A stretch of DNA of 22,958 bases from a virus, in IMG/VR virus record IMGVR_UViG_3300044998_000051, positions 1 to 22,958 of that record; one strand, given 5' to 3'. Positions 707 through 22,106 of this stretch are shown here, one piece after another. The notes under the pieces were generated by a model. It was not told where the DNA came from. It was given only the letters and a program-made list of their open reading frames with translations, and ran no database searches. Each line of letters begins with the position of its first letter. Within the stretch, counting starts at the first letter, position 1. Position numbers and translations under genes: made by a program.

Positions 707-1003
707 CTATCGGTCGTCCTTATCCGGGTGGGTGCGACGGTATTCCAGTAAGAACAGCAGGCAGCAAACCGCGTGCGCCTCATGCGGTAGGCCCGTTTCC
801 GGGTCCGCATCTTCTCCGCTTGCCGCAGCCAGAATATGACGTAGGGCGGCATCGTACATTCGGCTCCAAGCCATTCCGCCTCGCCAGTTGTTTTTGGCAT
901 ACTTCTGCGCCCCAAATTCCAGCACCCGCGCTACGTCGCATAGCGGGCCATACGGCAGCAGGCTTAACTGCACCTTGCCGTCATCGTGCTTGATTCCACT
1001 CAA
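707..1003 (-). CDS. dATP/dGTP diphosphohydrolase-like protein (DUF5664 family)
   Basis: The 98-residue protein begins KHDDGKVQLSLLPYGPL. It then has a VLEFGAQKYAKNNWRGG segment and RHILAAASGEDADPETGLPH with a following HAVCCLLFLLEY helix. This matches my memory of the phage family annotated dATP/dGTP diphosphohydrolase (DUF5664, all-alpha and MazG-like), which hydrolyses purine dNTPs to the monophosphate and pyrophosphate. In some phages these enzymes shift nucleotide pools. The ATG overlaps the stop of the metallophosphoesterase gene by 4 nt, so the two are probably co-translated. The length fits the family. The substrate cannot be read from the sequence. A nucleotide enzyme in a late lysis/tail operon is out of its usual early-gene place. 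Confidence 0.72.
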   Translation of the reverse strand: MSGIKHDDGKVQLSLLPYGPLCDVARVLEFGAQKYAKNNWRGGMAWSRMYDAALRHILAAASGEDADPETGLPHEAHAVCCLLFLLEYRRTHPDKDDR

Positions 1004-1920
1004 GGAACAATCCCCGTCCAGTTACCGTTTCTGTCCAGCGGCATGGGCACCAATTTGGGCCAGCCGTCGATTATCACGCCCACCGATATAATGGGGCGTT
1101 TCGCGTCGTATCGGTTATAGGCAAACGCCAGTGATTTCGTGTCAATCAGGCATCCCGCCGTCATGCCCCACAACAAGACATTGGGCGTTGACACATAGAT
1201 AATTTCCGCCCGCGAATGGTGGTGGCCCTGGACAAAGCACATGCGGTCATCCAGGACGTTGGATTCCACCCGCATTTTCTTGCCGTGGTGAAAATACACG
1301 GGGGCATGCGGGGTTTGTAATATCAGATCGGGATACCAGTGCCAGCCATGTCCCGTAGAAAGTTTAACGCTGCCGTCGTCCAGCTTGTCGCCGAATATCG
1401 CCGATTTGTAGTCAAGAATTAAGTGTCTCGGTATCCCGTGTGCCTTCGCTCTCCGGTACGCCATGGACCCGTGATTGCTGTCCAGAACGTCGGCAACGGG
1501 GAACAGGGCGGCCAATTCCGCCATGAACGTCCGGCCCTTCTGTAGCTCGGCACCCGCTGCGTCTAAATCCGGGTCGCTATCGTGGAAGCTCATGGCGTGG
1601 TAGTCTAGCTCGTCCCCACTCAGCACCACCCGGTCGGGCCTGTACTTACCCGCCACAGCAGCCAGGAACCGCAGCGCGTCGGGGTGGTGGTAGGGCGCGT
1701 GCAAGTCCGAAACAAACAGGATGGATTTGTATGTGTCAACCGGGTCGTCAACAACCGTTCCGGCATCGTTCCGCAGGCGCTTCCGAGCGTCCGCCATGAC
1801 CAGGCGGGCCTTGTCGCCCAAGCTCGACCTGGGAACGTCGTATTTGACGGCCGCCGCACGCTGCGACATGCCGTCAATCAGGCAGGCCTCAAGGGCCGCC
1901 CGCATCCGGTCAGTTGTCAA
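1000..1920 (-). CDS. Metallophosphoesterase with N-terminal helix-turn-helix
   Basis: The 306-residue protein joins a Psq-like helix-turn-helix (about residues 8-45, GMSQRAAAVKYDVPRSSL) to a calcineurin-type phosphoesterase. Metal-binding motifs appear in order: SDLH (D72, H74), GDELD (D103), SNHGS (N149, H150; a variant of GNHD/E), HHG (211-213) and GHHH (232-235). The fold hydrolyses phosphomono- or diesters with two metal ions; the substrate is unknown. The start is TTG at 1920. It is favoured because GGAG lies 8 nt upstream, whereas the next ATG (codon 6) has no such signal. It overlaps the diphosphohydrolase gene by 4 nt. The HTH-phosphatase fusion suggests action on nucleic acid, which is inference. 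Confidence 0.85.
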   Translation of the reverse strand: MTTDRMRAALEACLIDGMSQRAAAVKYDVPRSSLGDKARLVMADARKRLRNDAGTVVDDPVDTYKSILFVSDLHAPYHHPDALRFLAAVAGKYRPDRVVLSGDELDYHAMSFHDSDPDLDAAGAELQKGRTFMAELAALFPVADVLDSNHGSMAYRRAKAHGIPRHLILDYKSAIFGDKLDDGSVKLSTGHGWHWYPDLILQTPHAPVYFHHGKKMRVESNVLDDRMCFVQGHHHSRAEIIYVSTPNVLLWGMTAGCLIDTKSLAFAYNRYDAKRPIISVGVIIDGWPKLVPMPLDRNGNWTGIVP

Positions 1921-10463: not shown

Positions 10464-10876
10464 TAGGTGGCCGCCGTGTAGGTCAGAGCAGCAGCGGGCT
10501 GCAACTCAATGCTGTACTGAGTGGCGTCGTTGACTTCGCCGTCAATCTGGAACGATGTCACATAGAAGGGACCGGCGTATTTGTCGCCGTTGTCATTCAG
10601 TATCAATTCACAGTTCAACGTGGTGCGGGCGTGCCAGGAGGTGCGGACACGCTCCAATGTTGCGTCCCACGTTGCGTTACCGCTACAAGACACGTTGCCG
10701 GAAATCGTGGTAGCAAGGCCCGTCTGCCAACCGCTATTCGATTTGTCCGTGGTGTCCGCCACGTTGGTGGAACCGCCAAAAGTGGTCATTTTCTGACCCG
10801 CGAGGGTCGTGAACGTTTCAGAGGTCGCGCCATTGCCGACCTTCAACAGCACTTTAATGCCGCCCTCAACAGCCAT
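10463..10876 (-). CDS. Major tail tube protein
   Basis: This 137-residue protein begins MAVEGGIKVLLKVGNGATSE and has TFTTLAGQKMTTFGGSTNVA. WQTGLATTISGNVSCSGNAT follows, and the C-terminus is NDATQYSIELQPAAALTYTA. This matches the TP901-1/RcGTA gp9 family of tube-forming proteins. Length and position (before the chaperones and tape measure) fit. It polymerises as hexameric rings around the tape measure. Its start lies 11 nt inside the end of the DUF115-like gene, so that accessory gene is embedded in the tail operon rather than separated by its own terminator. Confidence 0.88.
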   Translation of the reverse strand: MAVEGGIKVLLKVGNGATSETFTTLAGQKMTTFGGSTNVADTTDKSNSGWQTGLATTISGNVSCSGNATWDATLERVRTSWHARTTLNCELILNDNGDKYAGPFYVTSFQIDGEVNDATQYSIELQPAAALTYTAAT

Positions 10877-11498
10877 TTACAGTCTCCTTTGTGATGCCCG
10901 CAGAAATCGCGGCTTTAGCCAGTTCAAGTTTCAGGGTTTGGATGCCGGGTACGAAGTTGACGTGCCGGTCTTTGTCCAATCGGACGGTTTGGGCCTTCAC
11001 AATTTCGACGGTCAGAAATTCCGGCTCGAACTTGTCAGGCGGAAGGTTGTAGATTTCAGTCAGGGGGCCACCGAGCGCGTGAATACGCGGGTCTCTAGGC
11101 GTCCACTTCGAAAGCTGTTCTTTGAGTGTCTTTTTCGCCCCGCTTGCCCCCGTGGGAACGCCGGGCGCGTGGCAGTATTCGTCCTTCTGGTAGCAATCAA
11201 ATCCCGCCAGAAGGATGGCGGTGTAGTTTTGCGTCAGGCAGTACCGAAGCGCACAAACGCCGCTGATCTGCCCTTGCGGGCTATCCCAATAAATGTCCGA
11301 CTTGTTGCGCCAACGGCTGATCTTCTTGCCGGGGAAGTGCTTAACTAAATCCCATGTGCGCTCGTCGTTAAAGACGATGAAATCACAGTCCACCAATTGG
11401 CTGGCGTGGTGGTTGATACCGTACAAATGAGCGCATGGCGGCACCTGCCGAAGCTGTTCAACCAGACTCGGCCCGCCGCCCAATATCGCCGCTATCAT
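10866..11498 (-). CDS. DUF115-like Rossmann-fold protein inserted in tail operon
   Basis: The 210-residue protein opens with a nucleotide-binding-type loop MIAAILGGGPSLVEQLRQ. LYGINHHASQLVDCDFIVFN (a strand followed by Asp) comes next, then ALRYCLTQNYTAILLAGFDC. These motifs (GxGPSL, a GIN segment, LAGFD) are those of the DUF115/MptE-like family, which includes enzymes related to sugar or pterin transfer and flagellin glycosylation factors. The product could modify a virion or host surface glycan, but the substrate is unknown. It is not a standard tail gene. It is joined to its neighbours by 4-nt and 11-nt overlaps. The C-terminal ~40 residues (VPGIQTLKLELAKAAISAGI) are helical and of unknown use. 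Confidence 0.65.
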   Translation of the reverse strand: MIAAILGGGPSLVEQLRQVPPCAHLYGINHHASQLVDCDFIVFNDERTWDLVKHFPGKKISRWRNKSDIYWDSPQGQISGVCALRYCLTQNYTAILLAGFDCYQKDEYCHAPGVPTGASGAKKTLKEQLSKWTPRDPRIHALGGPLTEIYNLPPDKFEPEFLTVEIVKAQTVRLDKDRHVNFVPGIQTLKLELAKAAISAGITKETVNGC

Positions 11499-12300: not shown

Positions 12301-12616
12301 TGTTCACGCCCTCTTGACACTCCATGGTCCAGAACTCTTTGCGTTCGTCCCGGTTTTCCAGGCTGCGGATGTTGAGATACTTCGATCCCCACAGCAGCCG
12401 CGCCGTGGTGTCAAAGCCCGTCCGGTAGCGGATCGTCACCAGATACGTTTGTAGGCTCGCCAGCCGCCCGGTGTCCTGTGTCTCGCGGCCCTTCACGGGC
12501 TTTACATTCGCCCACACGGTGGCCAGATTGGCCCAGGCACGGGTAGACCCGCCGCCGCCGTCTGAGGTGTCCGTGAATGTCTGAATGGTCACGCGCTCGC
12601 GCAGGCTACCAAGCAT
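12293..12616 (-). CDS. Phage head closure (head-tail joining) protein
   Basis: The 107-residue protein begins MLGSLRERVTIQTFTDTSDG, followed by GGGSTRAWANLATVWANVKP. The centre has RYRTGFDTTARLLWGSKYLN and the end RDERKEFWTMECQEG. These are the standard marks of the SPP1 gp16 / HK97-type head-tail joining family. It forms the stopper ring that closes the filled head. It overlaps the adaptor gene by 11 nt. Confidence 0.9.
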   Translation of the reverse strand: MLGSLRERVTIQTFTDTSDGGGGSTRAWANLATVWANVKPVKGRETQDTGRLASLQTYLVTIRYRTGFDTTARLLWGSKYLNIRSLENRDERKEFWTMECQEGVNNG

Positions 12617-13199
12617 GTTTGACCCGGTACTGGTCGATCAGGGAATTGATGTGCATGGGGATCATTCCCATGCTTTCACCGACCGGCTCGCGGTTCAGGT
12701 GCCAGTGCGCCACCAAGCCGCAGATGGCAAGCCGCAGCGGCTCGGGAACGTCATTCCAAGAGCTTCCATAGCCCGCCACAAACGTGATTTCGACCGGCTC
12801 TGCCCTATCCGTATCAACGTCGGTGGGCCAAGTCTGATCACCAAGCAGGTGAACGTACCCGCCAGACGTGCCGCCGGTGATAACCTCGTAAATCGAGGCT
12901 GAAACCGTGTCGAGATTGCCGCCGGTGTCGTAATACTTGACGTGCGTGACCGATTGCAGCGGTGGAAGCGGCAATTTGATGACGCTTTTGAAGTCAGGAA
13001 GCGACAATTTCCAGGTTTGTGACACCAAACAGCGCCCCAAAACGCCCGAAAACCCGTCCAAATGGTGCCTTGCAACAGCAACCAAGCCCGCTAAAAGCGC
13101 GTCATCTTCCGTCAAATCATCGTCGATTTTCAGGTAATTTTTGACTTCTGAGAGCGAAACAGGCTCTACGGAAGGCCCAGAAACCAGCGATAAGGTCAT
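12606..13199 (-). CDS. Head-tail connector (gp6-like / phiE125 gp8 family adaptor)
   Basis: The 197-residue protein has VEPVSLSEVKNYLKIDDDLT followed by DDALLAGLVAVARHHLDGFS. Then come SLPDFKSVIKLPLPPLQSVT and a VEITFVAGYGSSWNDVPEPL segment with a final helix. This is the classic phage adaptor family that binds under the portal (RcGTA gp6-like; TIGR02215 type). It starts 4 nt before the end of the small upstream gene and directly precedes the closure protein. Confidence 0.9.
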   Translation of the reverse strand: MTLSLVSGPSVEPVSLSEVKNYLKIDDDLTEDDALLAGLVAVARHHLDGFSGVLGRCLVSQTWKLSLPDFKSVIKLPLPPLQSVTHVKYYDTGGNLDTVSASIYEVITGGTSGGYVHLLGDQTWPTDVDTDRAEPVEITFVAGYGSSWNDVPEPLRLAICGLVAHWHLNREPVGESMGMIPMHINSLIDQYRVKHAW

Positions 13200-19417: not shown

Positions 19418-19729
19418 ATTCCGGTTCGCCGGGTGCCTCGGGTCAGTAGGCCAGCCCTGTGCGTCACAGGCGGTGCTGTAGCCCCTGCGCTCGGCGCGCT
19501 GCTTGGTGGCGTCGTGGTGAACCTTGCAGAGGCTTTGCAGGAGGCCGTGCCAGAACAGGTCGGGGTCGCCTTTGTGCGGCTGTACATGGTCCGCTACCGT
19601 TGCCGGGGTGATCCGCTTGTCCTGAAGGCAGAACGCGCATAGCGGCTCGGCTGTTAGCTGTGCCTGTCGCTTACGTCTCCAGCGGGCCAGCTTGTACCAC
19701 CTATCCCAGCGTGACTTATCTTGCCGCAC
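19412..19729 (-). CDS. HNH endonuclease
   Basis: This 105-residue basic protein has CAFC (a zinc-knuckle pair), then VADHVQPHKGDPDLFWHGL, which carries the DH and PHKGD core, and LLQSLCKVHHDATKQRAE. The layout is that of phage HNH nucleases encoded next to terminase (HK97 gp74-like), which assist cos cleavage with TerL. The second zinc pair reads CKVH instead of the usual CKxC, so a His may replace the last Cys ligand. The ATG at 19729 lies 14 nt inside the preceding gene. Confidence 0.9.
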   Translation of the reverse strand: MRQDKSRWDRWYKLARWRRKRQAQLTAEPLCAFCLQDKRITPATVADHVQPHKGDPDLFWHGLLQSLCKVHHDATKQRAERRGYSTACDAQGWPTDPRHPANRNV

Positions 19730-19976
19730 AGCGTATCGTTATCGTCCTGTCACCAATAAGCCCGTTGGCCGTGGTGACCGTCTCTGTCAGGTGGTACGTC
19801 TGTCCTAATGTCATGCCCTCAACCGTGACCGCTGCACTTGTTGCGTTTGTCAGGGTGGGGCCTGTAGGGGCAATCGTCCACGTCCTTGTGTCGATGCTAT
19901 CACCAGACGCCAGCCAGCTATCCCAATCGTGCTGCCAGTCTAGCTTTTCGTCAGGGTCTTGGAGGTAATACCCCAT
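19716..19976 (-). CDS. Phage fibre-tail adaptor-like protein
   Basis: The 86-residue protein begins MGYYLQDPDEKLDWQHDWDS, followed by WLASGDSIDTRTWTIAPTGP, and ends with VTTANGLIGDRTITIRCAAR. The Y-L-x-DPD-x-x-LD-x-x-x-DW-x-x-WL start and the GxxxDRTIxIR end are those of a small beta-sandwich family that I recall as 'phage fiber-tail adaptor'. It is often encoded just upstream of the packaging genes. It probably links the fibre encoded upstream to the virion. It overlaps its neighbours by 1 and 14 nt. Confidence 0.7.
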   Translation of the reverse strand: MGYYLQDPDEKLDWQHDWDSWLASGDSIDTRTWTIAPTGPTLTNATSAAVTVEGMTLGQTYHLTETVTTANGLIGDRTITIRCAAR

Positions 19977-20482
19977 TACGCACTCGCAGCCGTGAGGGTG
20001 ACAGTGATGTCCAAAGTGTCACCGTCGTTAAGGGTGCGGTTAGCCGACAACGCCGCGCCGCCGATCAGAATGCCAGTGGAACCGCCCTTGGTGCTGTCGG
20101 TTGTAACGAACGCGCCGCCGATGGCTGTGCTGTTGGTGGAGATTGTGAACTGCGCCTTGGAGGCCGTGTTACTTACGGACTGCGCAGAAACGCTGCCCAG
20201 CGTTAGAGCCTCGCGGGTCGCCTCGTCGTATGCGGTCACCTCGGTCCAGCCCGAATGAGATGCCATGGTGTCAGCGGCGGCGAAGGTAGGGGTATTGCCG
20301 GTCAGGCCGACGTAGTGCGCAGCAGAATAGCTCGACCCCTTCCAGAACTTGTCAAGGATTTCGTCAAGGCCAACGTTGACGGTGATATTCTCGCGGCGCT
20401 CCTCCCACAAAAGGTTCCCATGGCGGTCGCGGGCCGTGAAAACGTAGATATGTTTGAAAGTCGCGCCGATTTTCGTAGTCAT
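19976..20482 (-). CDS. Putative virion (head fibre-associated) protein
   Basis: The 168-residue beta-rich protein begins KIGATFKHIYVFTARDRHGN, followed by LLWEERRENITVNVGLDEIL. It has AAHYVGLTGNTPTFAAADTM, and the C-terminus has LNDGDTLDITVTLTAASA. The opening (a tag, RD..G.L.W....N.....GL.ylld..f) and 'hyVGLt...' recall a widespread phage structural protein, usually unnamed, found near fibres. It overlaps the repeat fibre gene by 4 nt (ATGA) and the adaptor by 1 nt, forming one unit. Its function is inferred from context. Confidence 0.65.
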   Translation of the reverse strand: MTTKIGATFKHIYVFTARDRHGNLLWEERRENITVNVGLDEILDKFWKGSSYSAAHYVGLTGNTPTFAAADTMASHSGWTEVTAYDEATREALTLGSVSAQSVSNTASKAQFTISTNSTAIGGAFVTTDSTKGGSTGILIGGAALSANRTLNDGDTLDITVTLTAASA

Positions 20483-21783
20483 ACTACGATTCTCCTGGTT
20501 TGAATCTGTACCTGAATGGCCCGGCCCTGCGCCGGGACTGCAATGATCCGCCGCGCCGGGGGCGTGACGCCCCCCACACTGCTGGCGATAGCCGTTCCCA
20601 GCGCCGCGCCGATCTGAATGGCGTCGAATGTTGATGCCTGGGCCGCAAGTAGAATGTCCGGCGTGATCCCGATGCTGATAGTGGCCTGCGCCGCAGCCTG
20701 TCCGGCCGTTGATATCCCGGCCTCCAGGGTCAGCGTAAAGCCGTCCGCAGCAGCGGCAACGGAAGCCGCCGTAATGCCGATGCCGACACCCAGGCCAATG
20801 CTGTCGCTGTACTGCTGTAGCGCCGCGTCCGAAACCGATATACCAAGGCCAATGCCTACGGAAATCGCCCCGAGAGCGGCCGCAACGCTGTCGTTGTTGA
20901 TGCCCGCCGCCAATCCTAGGGCCAGCGTGTCAACAGCCGCCGCCGTGCCAACGCACGACAACCCGGCTGATAGTCCGATGGAGACCGCATCACCGGCAGA
21001 CGCCACAGAAAGCAGGCTTAGGCCGGAGGTCACCCCCAGGGGAACGCTGTCGTTTGCCGCTGCCAACCCCGCCAGGGATACACCGGCGGAGAGGCCCAGA
21101 CTAATGCTGTCGGAGTAGCTTGCCGGGCCACCCGCCGCCGCCGGGCGGATCGCTACTGTGAAGCAGCCGTTGTTGCCGCCCTCGTTGAGGGTAAACGTGC
21201 CAGGGTCCTCCGAGGCCGCGTTGAGCTGGCGGCGCGCCGATATCACCGAGACGCCGAGATTGGCCCCGCCGCCGGACGCGATCTGCGTCAGGTCGGTATA
21301 GTTGGTGGGCGCGGCCGTGGCGACCTCGTCATCATCCGCCGCGCAGGCCACCGCCAGCCACAATATGTCCTCGCCGCCGAACGACGGCGCGAGATTAGGT
21401 GGATTCGGATTACTCGACGGGCTGACGTTGGCGAACGCAGCCTCGACTCCCGCCGTGGTGGCGTAGGCGCCCGTGATGCGATAGACCTGCGCCGCCGCCT
21501 GCCGCGACAGGCTGATCGACACGCTGAGCGATCCGCCGCCCTCGGTGCCGTCGGCGATGCGGGCGTATACGCCGGAAAAACATCCGGCCGCCGGTCCCGC
21601 CGCCTGGCCGGAGGATATTAAATCGTATCCGCTCGGCGTGGTGATCGCCGGATTGGTCCGCGCCCCGAAAATCAGCAGCAGCAGGTCGCCGCTGCTGACT
21701 GTCGCCGGCATGTTGACGTTATGCGTCGTCGATCCGGACGAAAAAGCCGTCTGCGTAATCGACGCGACTTGGGGGAATGCCAT
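20479..21783 (-). CDS. Repeat-containing fibre protein
   Basis: The 434-residue protein has a beta-rich N-terminal domain of about 222 residues (AFPQVASITQTAFSSGSTTH; ending GCFTVAIRPAAAGGP), a common phage surface-fibre head domain. Nine consecutive repeats of 20 residues follow (about 223-404; one carries two extra residues), of the form xD-x-(I/V/L)-x-(L/I)-G-(L/V/I)-x-x-G-(I/V/L). The basic C-terminal tail has ARRIIAVPAQGRAIQVQIQT, resembling the R-x-I-x-V-P-x-x-x-R repeats of some phage capsid fibres. AGAGGA lies 6 nt before the ATG. It is the first gene of the late cluster in transcription order. A trimeric or solenoid fibre on the head or tail is inferred. Confidence 0.7.
   Translation of the reverse strand: MAFPQVASITQTAFSSGSTTHNVNMPATVSSGDLLLLIFGARTNPAITTPSGYDLISSGQAAGPAAGCFSGVYARIADGTEGGGSLSVSISLSRQAAAQVYRITGAYATTAGVEAAFANVSPSSNPNPPNLAPSFGGEDILWLAVACAADDDEVATAAPTNYTDLTQIASGGGANLGVSVISARRQLNAASEDPGTFTLNEGGNNGCFTVAIRPAAAGGPASYSDSISLGLSAGVSLAGLAAANDSVPLGVTSGLSLLSVASAGDAVSIGLSAGLSCVGTAAAVDTLALGLAAGINNDSVAAALGAISVGIGLGISVSDAALQQYSDSIGLGVGIGITAASVAAAADGFTLTLEAGISTAGQAAAQATISIGITPDILLAAQASTFDAIQIGAALGTAIASSVGGVTPPARRIIAVPAQGRAIQVQIQTRRIVV
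20572..21117 (-). repeat. Nine tandem ~60-bp coding repeats
   Basis: These encode residues 223-404 of the fibre protein. Representative units: YSDSISLGLSAGVSLAGLAA, AGDAVSIGLSAGLSCVGTAA, YSDSIGLGVGIGITAASVAA. Units share the D-x-I-x-L-G-L-x-x-G-I core but differ widely at DNA level, so selection rather than recent expansion keeps the period. Confidence 0.85.
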
Positions 21784-21965: not shown

Positions 21966-22106
21966 ATGGCTAAGGGTATTCTAGACGACACCAGCGTTGA
22001 CTTCAGTTGTCCCGGCTGCGGCCAGAAGATCAAGAAGACCATCGGATGGCTCTACTCTAACCCGGAGATAACCTGCCCCGGCTGCGGCGAAACCATCACA
22101 TTGTAG
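21966..22106 (+). CDS. Small CPGC zinc-ribbon protein, amber-terminated
   Basis: The ATG at 21966 starts MAKGILDDTSVDFSCPGCGQ, continuing KIKKTIGWLYSNPEITCPGC and GETITL, then TAG at 22104-22106 (46 residues). Two CPGCG knuckles (Cys15/18 and Cys37/40) should bind one zinc. This is the only well-supported plus-strand gene in the window and it has its own promoter candidate. After the TAG the same frame runs on for 29 coding-looking codons, so the 46-residue product is probably a truncation of a 76-residue form. I recall similar small zinc-ribbon proteins with a charged helical C-terminus in alphaproteobacteria; the function is unknown. Confidence 0.65.
   Translation: MAKGILDDTSVDFSCPGCGQKIKKTIGWLYSNPEITCPGCGETITL

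What the first reader, a model, noticed from the sequence alone, without database searches (positions are those of the whole stretch)
19716..21783. Fibre module with nine 20-residue repeats ahead of the packaging genes
Nine D-x-I-x-L-G-L-x-x-G-I repeats at constant 20-residue spacing suggest a solenoid or trimeric beta shaft. The globular N-terminal domain and basic VP-R type C-terminus could be tip and anchor. The three overlapping genes lie upstream of HNH/terminase rather than with the tailspike. The phage may thus carry two separate adhesin systems, one perhaps on the head.
Basis: partly seen in the sequence, partly recalled or inferred. Interest (0 to 1): 0.6.

Follow-up and report, generated by a model that had tools for sequence, protein, structure and literature searches.

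The report
Beads-on-a-rope neck fibre of phage
Three overlapping genes of this uncultivated tailed phage most likely build a flexible side fibre in which many copies of a small protein are threaded like beads on a rope protein made of 20-amino-acid repeats, hooked to the phage's neck; phages with this type of bead often carry a rope with the same 20-residue spacing, which suggests a common construction rule.

Summary
In detail: a 434-aa protein with nine ~20-residue units (lag-20 identity z 8.3, 0/2000 shuffles; one spacer is 22, Asp in 7/9), followed by overlapping 168-aa and 86-aa genes ahead of HNH/TerS/TerL. The interpretation changes. The 86-aa protein is PF23148, the 'fiber-tail adaptor' of podophage GP4 (3e-17). 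The 168-aa protein belongs to a bead family (solved in phage KPP25, profile 1e-54), and its model matches GP4 'Fiber I' (8jou, prob 0.99). The 434-aa protein then corresponds to the rope linking the beads, not a trimeric or solenoid shaft. Support: (i) in all six GP4-group phages read, a gene between bead and adaptor also has ~20-aa repeats (pooled lag-20 z 11) and an Arg-rich C-terminus; (ii) 23/31 and 23/39 long bead loci hold a protein with lag 20 or 40, against 1/43 long control loci sharing the terminase family, and that one adjoins the only bead gene found there; (iii) about 26 unrelated ropes share the period. One relative fuses the adaptor to a head-tail connector, so the fibre probably sits on the neck. 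Siphophage LSH1 has a similar three-gene module, reported as virion proteins. Bead docking by strand addition is inferred, not shown.

The parts
20479..21783 (-). rope protein gene, 434 aa
   Evidence: ORF; nine ~20-aa units; no Pfam/PHROG/NCBIfam/PDB match
21145..21783 (-). N-terminal beta-rich globular domain, residues 1-213; probable distal tip (inferred)
   Evidence: relatives in 4 viral contigs at 31-45% identity; AF2 residues 1-120 mostly pLDDT 70-85; BFVD matches to minor-tail and uncharacterised phage proteins, prob 1.00
20566..21120 (-). nine ~20-residue units, residues 222-406; proposed bead-docking track
   Evidence: lag-20 z 8.25, 0/2000 shuffles; AF2 puts about one strand in each unit, at low confidence
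20482..20562 (-). C-terminal Arg-x-hydrophobic-x-Val repeats, residues 408-434; proposed anchor on the adaptor
   Evidence: pattern only in adaptor-bearing bead loci (9/28 v 0/144, partly circular); independent Arg-content test p=0.0013
19976..20482 (-). bead protein gene, 168 aa
   Evidence: PDB 26la_U/44nx phmmer 2.5e-12, profile 1.2e-54; the PDB sequence is phage KPP25 ORF007; AF2 pLDDT 82 matches 8jou_a GP4 fiber I prob 0.99; PF23140 2.5e-4, below the family cut-off
19716..19976 (-). adaptor protein gene, 86 aa
   Evidence: PF23148 Gp77 GP4 fiber-tail adaptor 3.1e-17, 63.3 bits v cut-off 27; 8jou_D 9.9e-5, profile 3e-25
12606..13199 (-). head-tail adaptor of this phage (phrog_442); candidate neck platform for the adaptor ring
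   Evidence: phrog_442 5.9e-29; in L017 the adaptor domain is fused to a phrog_442 domain

Best explanation
The three genes encode a bead-chain neck fibre of the GP4 fiber I type. The 86-aa Ig-like protein is the collar subunit that sits on the head-tail connector. The 434-aa protein is the rope: its C-terminal Arg-x-hydrophobic-x-Val repeats hook onto the collar, its nine 20-residue units form a linear track, and its N-terminal domain hangs at the far end as a tip. The 168-aa protein is the bead; its dimers clamp the track, probably because each 20-residue unit lends a beta-strand to a bead subunit, so the rope's length would set the number of beads. SHOWN by sequence or structure comparison: gene order, repeats, families of bead and adaptor, lag-20 rule across bead loci, adaptor fused to a neck protein in a relative. 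INFERRED: dimeric beads and 15-fold collar (from GP4), strand addition, repeat-to-bead stoichiometry, C-terminus as anchor, N-terminus as tip, role in host contact.
For: Adaptor = PF23148 3.1e-17. Bead profile finds KPP25's solved protein at 1.2e-54 and the bead model matches GP4 fiber I, 8jou_a, prob 0.99; 8jou holds ten gp80 and three gp77 chains, as expected for five dimers on three collar subunits. In BcepMigl, JC1, Itty13, PBC5, POI1126 and Atu_ph08 a gene lies between bead and adaptor with ~20-aa repeats and an Arg-rich C-terminus; pooled with the L017 rope, lag 20 z 11.0, 40 z 7.4, 60 z 5.4. Loci >=9 kb with a lag-20/40 protein: 23/31 and 23/39 in two bead sets, 1/43 in TerL-relative controls (all lengths p~2e-12 each); the single control case, L114, has the periodic gene next to the only bead gene in that set. 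About 26 rope clusters without detectable mutual similarity share lag 20/40 (one best at 21). L007/L008 place rope-bead-adaptor between capsid and head-tail adaptor. L017 fuses adaptor to connector. Mycobacteriophage Rumpelstiltskin gp22-gp23-gp24 repeats the trio, and the BFVD search with the 434-aa model returned the 762-aa minor tail protein of phage Tourach, apparently its gp24 counterpart, prob 1.00. LSH1 siphophage gp34-36 is a similar trio described as virion proteins (PMC13243795).
Against: No structure shows a 20-residue unit bound to a bead; I could not model a complex, and GP4's rope is not in the PDB sequence set. That GP4's rope is the gene between bead and adaptor is inferred from relatives, because GP4's genome and paper were not available. 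Bead homologues in KPP25 and in the F116 region read come without a convincing period-20 rope, so a bead does not require one. 37/70 and 43/79 bead loci lack a detected rope at z>7 (many are truncated). Most bead-1 loci lack the PF23148 adaptor, so the anchor differs among relatives. In many bead-2 loci the rope is not adjacent to the bead. The LSH1 authors found no complex among the three proteins with AlphaFold.
Confidence: 0.77

Rival explanations
1. Self-folding repeat shaft: three copies of the 434-aa protein form a triple beta-spiral or beta-solenoid, with the 168-aa protein as a separate fibre or decoration.
For: Repeats are strand-forming in the model and phage fibres are often trimeric beta-structures (general knowledge).
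Against: Repeat region pLDDT <50 and no PDB fold match. The co-occurrence with bead genes and the shared 20-residue period across unrelated ropes are not expected if the shaft folds alone. LSH1's equivalent C-terminal region is also poorly predicted.
Confidence: 0.12
2. Head fibre: the module decorates capsid vertices or edges rather than the neck.
For: PHROG calls a bead subfamily 'head protein' (phrog_240); in L007/L008 the genes follow the capsid gene.
Against: Adaptor fused to a head-tail connector in L017; the GP4 protein of this family is named a fiber-tail adaptor.
Confidence: 0.08
3. Tail-tip adhesin: the rope is attached at the distal tail or baseplate instead of the neck.
For: In L009 the rope's C-terminal part weakly matches DUF2460 (2.8e-5, below cut-off) and the neighbouring genes look tail-like by eye, so some ropes may attach to the tail.
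Against: L009 shows no adaptor hit; the window has the GP4-type adaptor and an Arg-repeat C-terminus, and its module is next to packaging genes, not the tail tip.
Confidence: 0.07
4. Not a virion component, for example cargo genes carried with the HNH endonuclease.
For: Near the contig end and overlapping the HNH gene.
Against: All three families are virion proteins in other phages (8jou; LSH1 virion proteins per PMC13243795).
Confidence: 0.02

Closest known systems
Ralstonia podophage GP4 fiber I and fiber-tail adaptor (PDB 8JOU; Pfam PF23140 Gp80, PF23148 Gp77)
   Same: Adaptor is the same Pfam family; bead has the same predicted fold; in GP4-group phages a repeat gene with ~20-aa units and Arg-rich C-terminus lies between bead and adaptor.
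   Different: This phage is siphovirus-like (tape measure, distal tail protein, J-like hub); its rope carries a ~213-aa N-terminal domain absent from the BcepMigl, JC1, Itty13, PBC5, POI1126 and Atu_ph08 ropes; the bead is 168 aa v 140 and below PF23140's cut-off.
Alishewanella siphophage LSH1 gp34-gp36 'extra structural module' (PMC13243795)
   Same: Three-gene module in a siphophage: large protein with N-terminal domain and poorly predicted C-terminal region, GP4-type bead, Ig-fold protein; described as virion proteins.
   Different: The authors did not know what the C-terminal region is; a phage they cite as sharing the gp34 domain, Slicko01, has a 1843-aa protein with lag-40 repeats near a weak bead hit.
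Mycobacteriophage Rumpelstiltskin (Faithunavirus) gp22-gp23-gp24
   Same: Adaptor, PF23140 bead (7.8e-30) and repeat protein with Arg-rich 9-residue C-terminal repeats, in one run of genes.
   Different: Bead of the PF23140 subfamily; repeat protein includes a Gly-rich domain (PF21722); annotated as minor tail and head proteins.
Anabaena myophage A-1(L) bead-chain neck fibres (PMC10966104)
   Same: Five flexible bead-chain fibres on a 15-fold neck ring with a larger distal bead.
   Different: Beads are trimers that join head to tail without a rope, in the authors' model; no homology tested.

Membership tests
GP4 fiber-tail adaptor (PF23148) | curated Pfam profile above cut-off | tested here: met
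   63.3 bits v 27
GP4 fiber-tail adaptor (PF23148) | 15-fold collar round the tail/neck | not testable with these tools
   neck location supported by the L017 fusion only
GP4 fiber I bead (PF23140 Gp80) | curated Pfam profile above cut-off | tested here: not met
   21.8 bits v 27; so filed as same fold and role, not as a PF23140 member
GP4 fiber I bead (PF23140 Gp80) | fold of 8jou_a | tested here: met
   Foldseek prob 0.99, E 6.3e-3, TM 0.39-0.47: modest superposition
KPP25-type bead (PDB 26la/44nx) | sequence homology over full length | tested here: met
   profile 1.2e-54, residues 10-166 of 171
GP4-type fibre module | rope, bead and adaptor genes together | tested here: met
   gene order
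GP4-type fibre module | rope with 20-residue repeats and Arg-repeat C-terminus | tested here: met
GP4-type fibre module | beads physically threaded on the rope as dimers | not testable with these tools
   needs a complex model or structure
Trimeric beta-spiral or solenoid fibre shaft | confident self-folding repeat structure | tested here: inconclusive
   monomer model pLDDT <50, no fold match; trimer not modelled

The most novel reading that the evidence does not exclude
A 20-residue unit is a general docking ruler for bead proteins of the GP4/KPP25 fold: phages of many kinds evolved unrelated ropes that all keep this spacing, so rope length encodes fibre length and tips and anchors can be swapped freely, giving a modular side-fibre system readable from sequence.
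Probability: 0.6. Interest if true: 0.75.

Novelty: new variant of a known kind. Interest (0 to 1): 0.6.

Why it matters
It turns an unnamed repeat protein into a component of a definable machine, suggests what the unexplained, badly predicted C-terminal region of the LSH1 gp34 protein is, points to the likely gene for GP4's rope, and gives a sequence rule (20-residue lag near a bead gene) for finding neck fibres in uncultivated phages. If the spacing is a docking ruler, fibre length and bead number become predictable from sequence and testable.

Tried and rejected
tblastn of the 434-aa protein against 50,697 phage records: no match. The adaptor gave no confirmed viral relative as a query, and the L007 adaptor only its own contigs. 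PDB fold search of the 434-aa model: nothing significant. Rope sequences of BcepMigl and JC1 are not in the PDB sequence set. A common 7-residue alternation of hydrophobic residues across ropes was only weak (mean z 1.2), so I do not lean on it. The Arg-motif test was partly circular because its pattern came from some of the positives; only L220 and L245 are held-out, so I rely on the Arg-content comparison instead. Other periodicities seen in bead loci (17, 18, 26) I took for unrelated repeats; periodic ORFs in L209 and L218 were left out as likely wrong-frame shadows, and KPP25's lag-20 hit is its annotated pentapeptide-repeat protein. 'rope protein' found no paper in the library; the wording 'rope' for GP4 is from memory of its abstract.

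Full report
OBSERVATION. The window is a complete viral record of 22,958 bases. On the - strand lie 434-aa (20479-21783), 168-aa (19976-20482) and 86-aa (19716-19976) genes that overlap each other and the HNH gene, followed by TerS, TerL, portal, prohead protease and capsid. Residues 218-400 of the 434-aa protein repeat every 20 residues: identity at lag 20 is 32.5%, z 8.25, reached by 0 of 2000 shuffles; lags 40 and 60 also stand out. One spacer is 22 and the Asp is kept in seven of nine units.

WHAT THE PARTNERS ARE. The 86-aa protein is Pfam PF23148, 'Podophage GP4 fiber-tail adaptor gp77' (3.1e-17), and matches chain D of 8jou (with a profile 3e-25). The 168-aa protein matches PDB 26la/44nx (2.5e-12), whose sequence is ORF007 of Pseudomonas phage KPP25; a family profile reaches it at 1.2e-54. 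Its AlphaFold model (pLDDT 82) matches 8jou_a, 'Fiber I and fiber-tail-adaptor of phage GP4', prob 0.99 though with modest TM-scores; the Pfam Gp80 profile is just below cut-off. 8jou holds ten gp80 and three gp77 chains. From memory of the GP4 abstract (J Mol Biol 435:168258, not held), fiber I is five gp80 dimers linked by an elongated rope protein on a 15-fold adaptor ring; the LSH1 paper describes 8JOU_g as a fibril joining an adhesin to the tail collar, and the DEV paper compares its own 15:12 collar mismatch to that of GP4.

THE REPEAT PROTEIN AS ROPE. In GP4's relatives BcepMigl, JC1, Itty13, PBC5, POI1126 and Atu_ph08 (unannotated there) a gene lies between bead and adaptor; it has ~20-residue repeats and an Arg-rich C-terminus. 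Pooled with the rope of L017, lag 20 reaches z 11.0 with harmonics at 40 and 60. The window's trio has the same composition. The same trio occurs in mycobacteriophage Rumpelstiltskin gp22-24; the BFVD search with the window's 434-aa model found the 762-aa minor tail protein of phage Tourach, which I take to be the gp24 counterpart.

A CONTROLLED TEST. I scanned all proteins >=120 aa near bead genes for periodicity. Set 1: 70 loci with relatives of the 168-aa bead, 33 with a lag-20/40 protein at z>7. Set 2: 79 loci with relatives of a different bead subfamily, 36 with one. Control: 79 loci with relatives of the window's terminase, one (Fisher p~2e-12 for each set). Among loci of at least 9 kb: 23/31, 23/39 and 1/43. 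The single control case, L114, has its periodic gene directly after the only bead gene detected in the control set. The periodic proteins with lag 20, 21 or 40 fall into 26 clusters without detectable mutual similarity. The loci within a set are partly related, so the p-values overstate independence; the cluster count is the safer number. Not all beads have ropes: KPP25 and the F116 region do not.

WHERE IT SITS. In L007/L008 the order is capsid, a 104-aa gene, rope, bead, adaptor, head-tail adaptor. In L017 the adaptor domain (residues 6-84, PF23148 1.4e-23) is fused to a head-tail connector (residues 94-292, phrog_442 9.5e-32), the family of the window's own connector at 12606-13199 (5.9e-29); L017 also has bead and rope upstream. 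A fusion of this kind suggests that the two parts sit together, i.e. at the neck. Independently of any motif, C-termini of ropes from adaptor-bearing loci are richer in Arg (5 v 15 ropes, p 0.0013), consistent with the C-terminus binding the adaptor.

MECHANISM (inferred). C-terminus hooked to the collar; 20-residue units threaded through bead dimers, probably by lending a strand to each subunit; N-terminal domain at the tip. The rope alone is not predicted to fold (pLDDT <50 for residues 216-434), as expected for a segment ordered only by its partner, but low confidence with five sequences is weak evidence. The N-terminal domain belongs to a broad class of phage structural domains; whether it binds the host is untested.

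AGAINST KNOWN SYSTEMS. It works like GP4 fiber I and, by adaptor family and module composition, belongs with it; the bead itself is not a PF23140 member by cut-off. LSH1, a siphophage, carries a similar trio described as virion proteins, and its authors could not explain the poorly predicted C-terminal region of gp34. Slicko01, which they cite as sharing the gp34 domain, has a 1843-aa protein with lag-40 repeats (z 12.1) near a weak bead hit (7.2e-5); I did not check that this is the protein they mean. A-1(L)'s bead-chain neck fibres look alike but are modelled as trimers without a rope.

WHAT WOULD CHANGE MY MIND. A complex model or structure without unit-bead contacts, or GP4's rope being a different gene.

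Noticed in passing
window 21966-22106 (+): 46-aa ORF MAKGILDDTSVDFSCPGCGQKIKKTIGWLYSNPEITCPGCGETITL with two CPGCG knuckles: a tiny zinc-ribbon-like protein on the opposite strand just upstream of the rope gene.
   Followed up: no
window 10866-11498 (-): 210-aa protein, not a usual tail gene by eye, inserted between the tail-terminator-like gene and the major-tail-protein-like gene.
   Followed up: no
window 1000-1920 (-): Psq-type HTH (PF05225 1.1e-9) fused to a metallophosphoesterase (phrog_221 7.9e-62).
   Followed up: no
L259:3569-9100: Slicko01 1843-aa protein with lag-40 repeats (z 12.1) near a weak bead hit (7.2e-5): may explain the badly predicted region in LSH1 gp34-like proteins.
   Followed up: partly
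L263:12367-13767: Methanosarcina virus MetMV has a bead gene and nearby a protein with LGLSD-type repeats (z at lag 20/40 only 4.4); the bead model also matches a tail protein of Haloferax virus HFTV1 (9h4p_BD, prob 1.00): bead fibres may reach archaeal viruses.
   Followed up: partly
L017:6485-7372: Natural fusion of the GP4-type adaptor domain with a phrog_442 head-tail connector.
   Followed up: yes
L022, L057 and related bead-1 loci: Ropes lacking the adaptor often end in Trp-rich ~10-residue repeats (e.g. NPNWxxIxDAQTPxW), perhaps a different anchor class.
   Followed up: no
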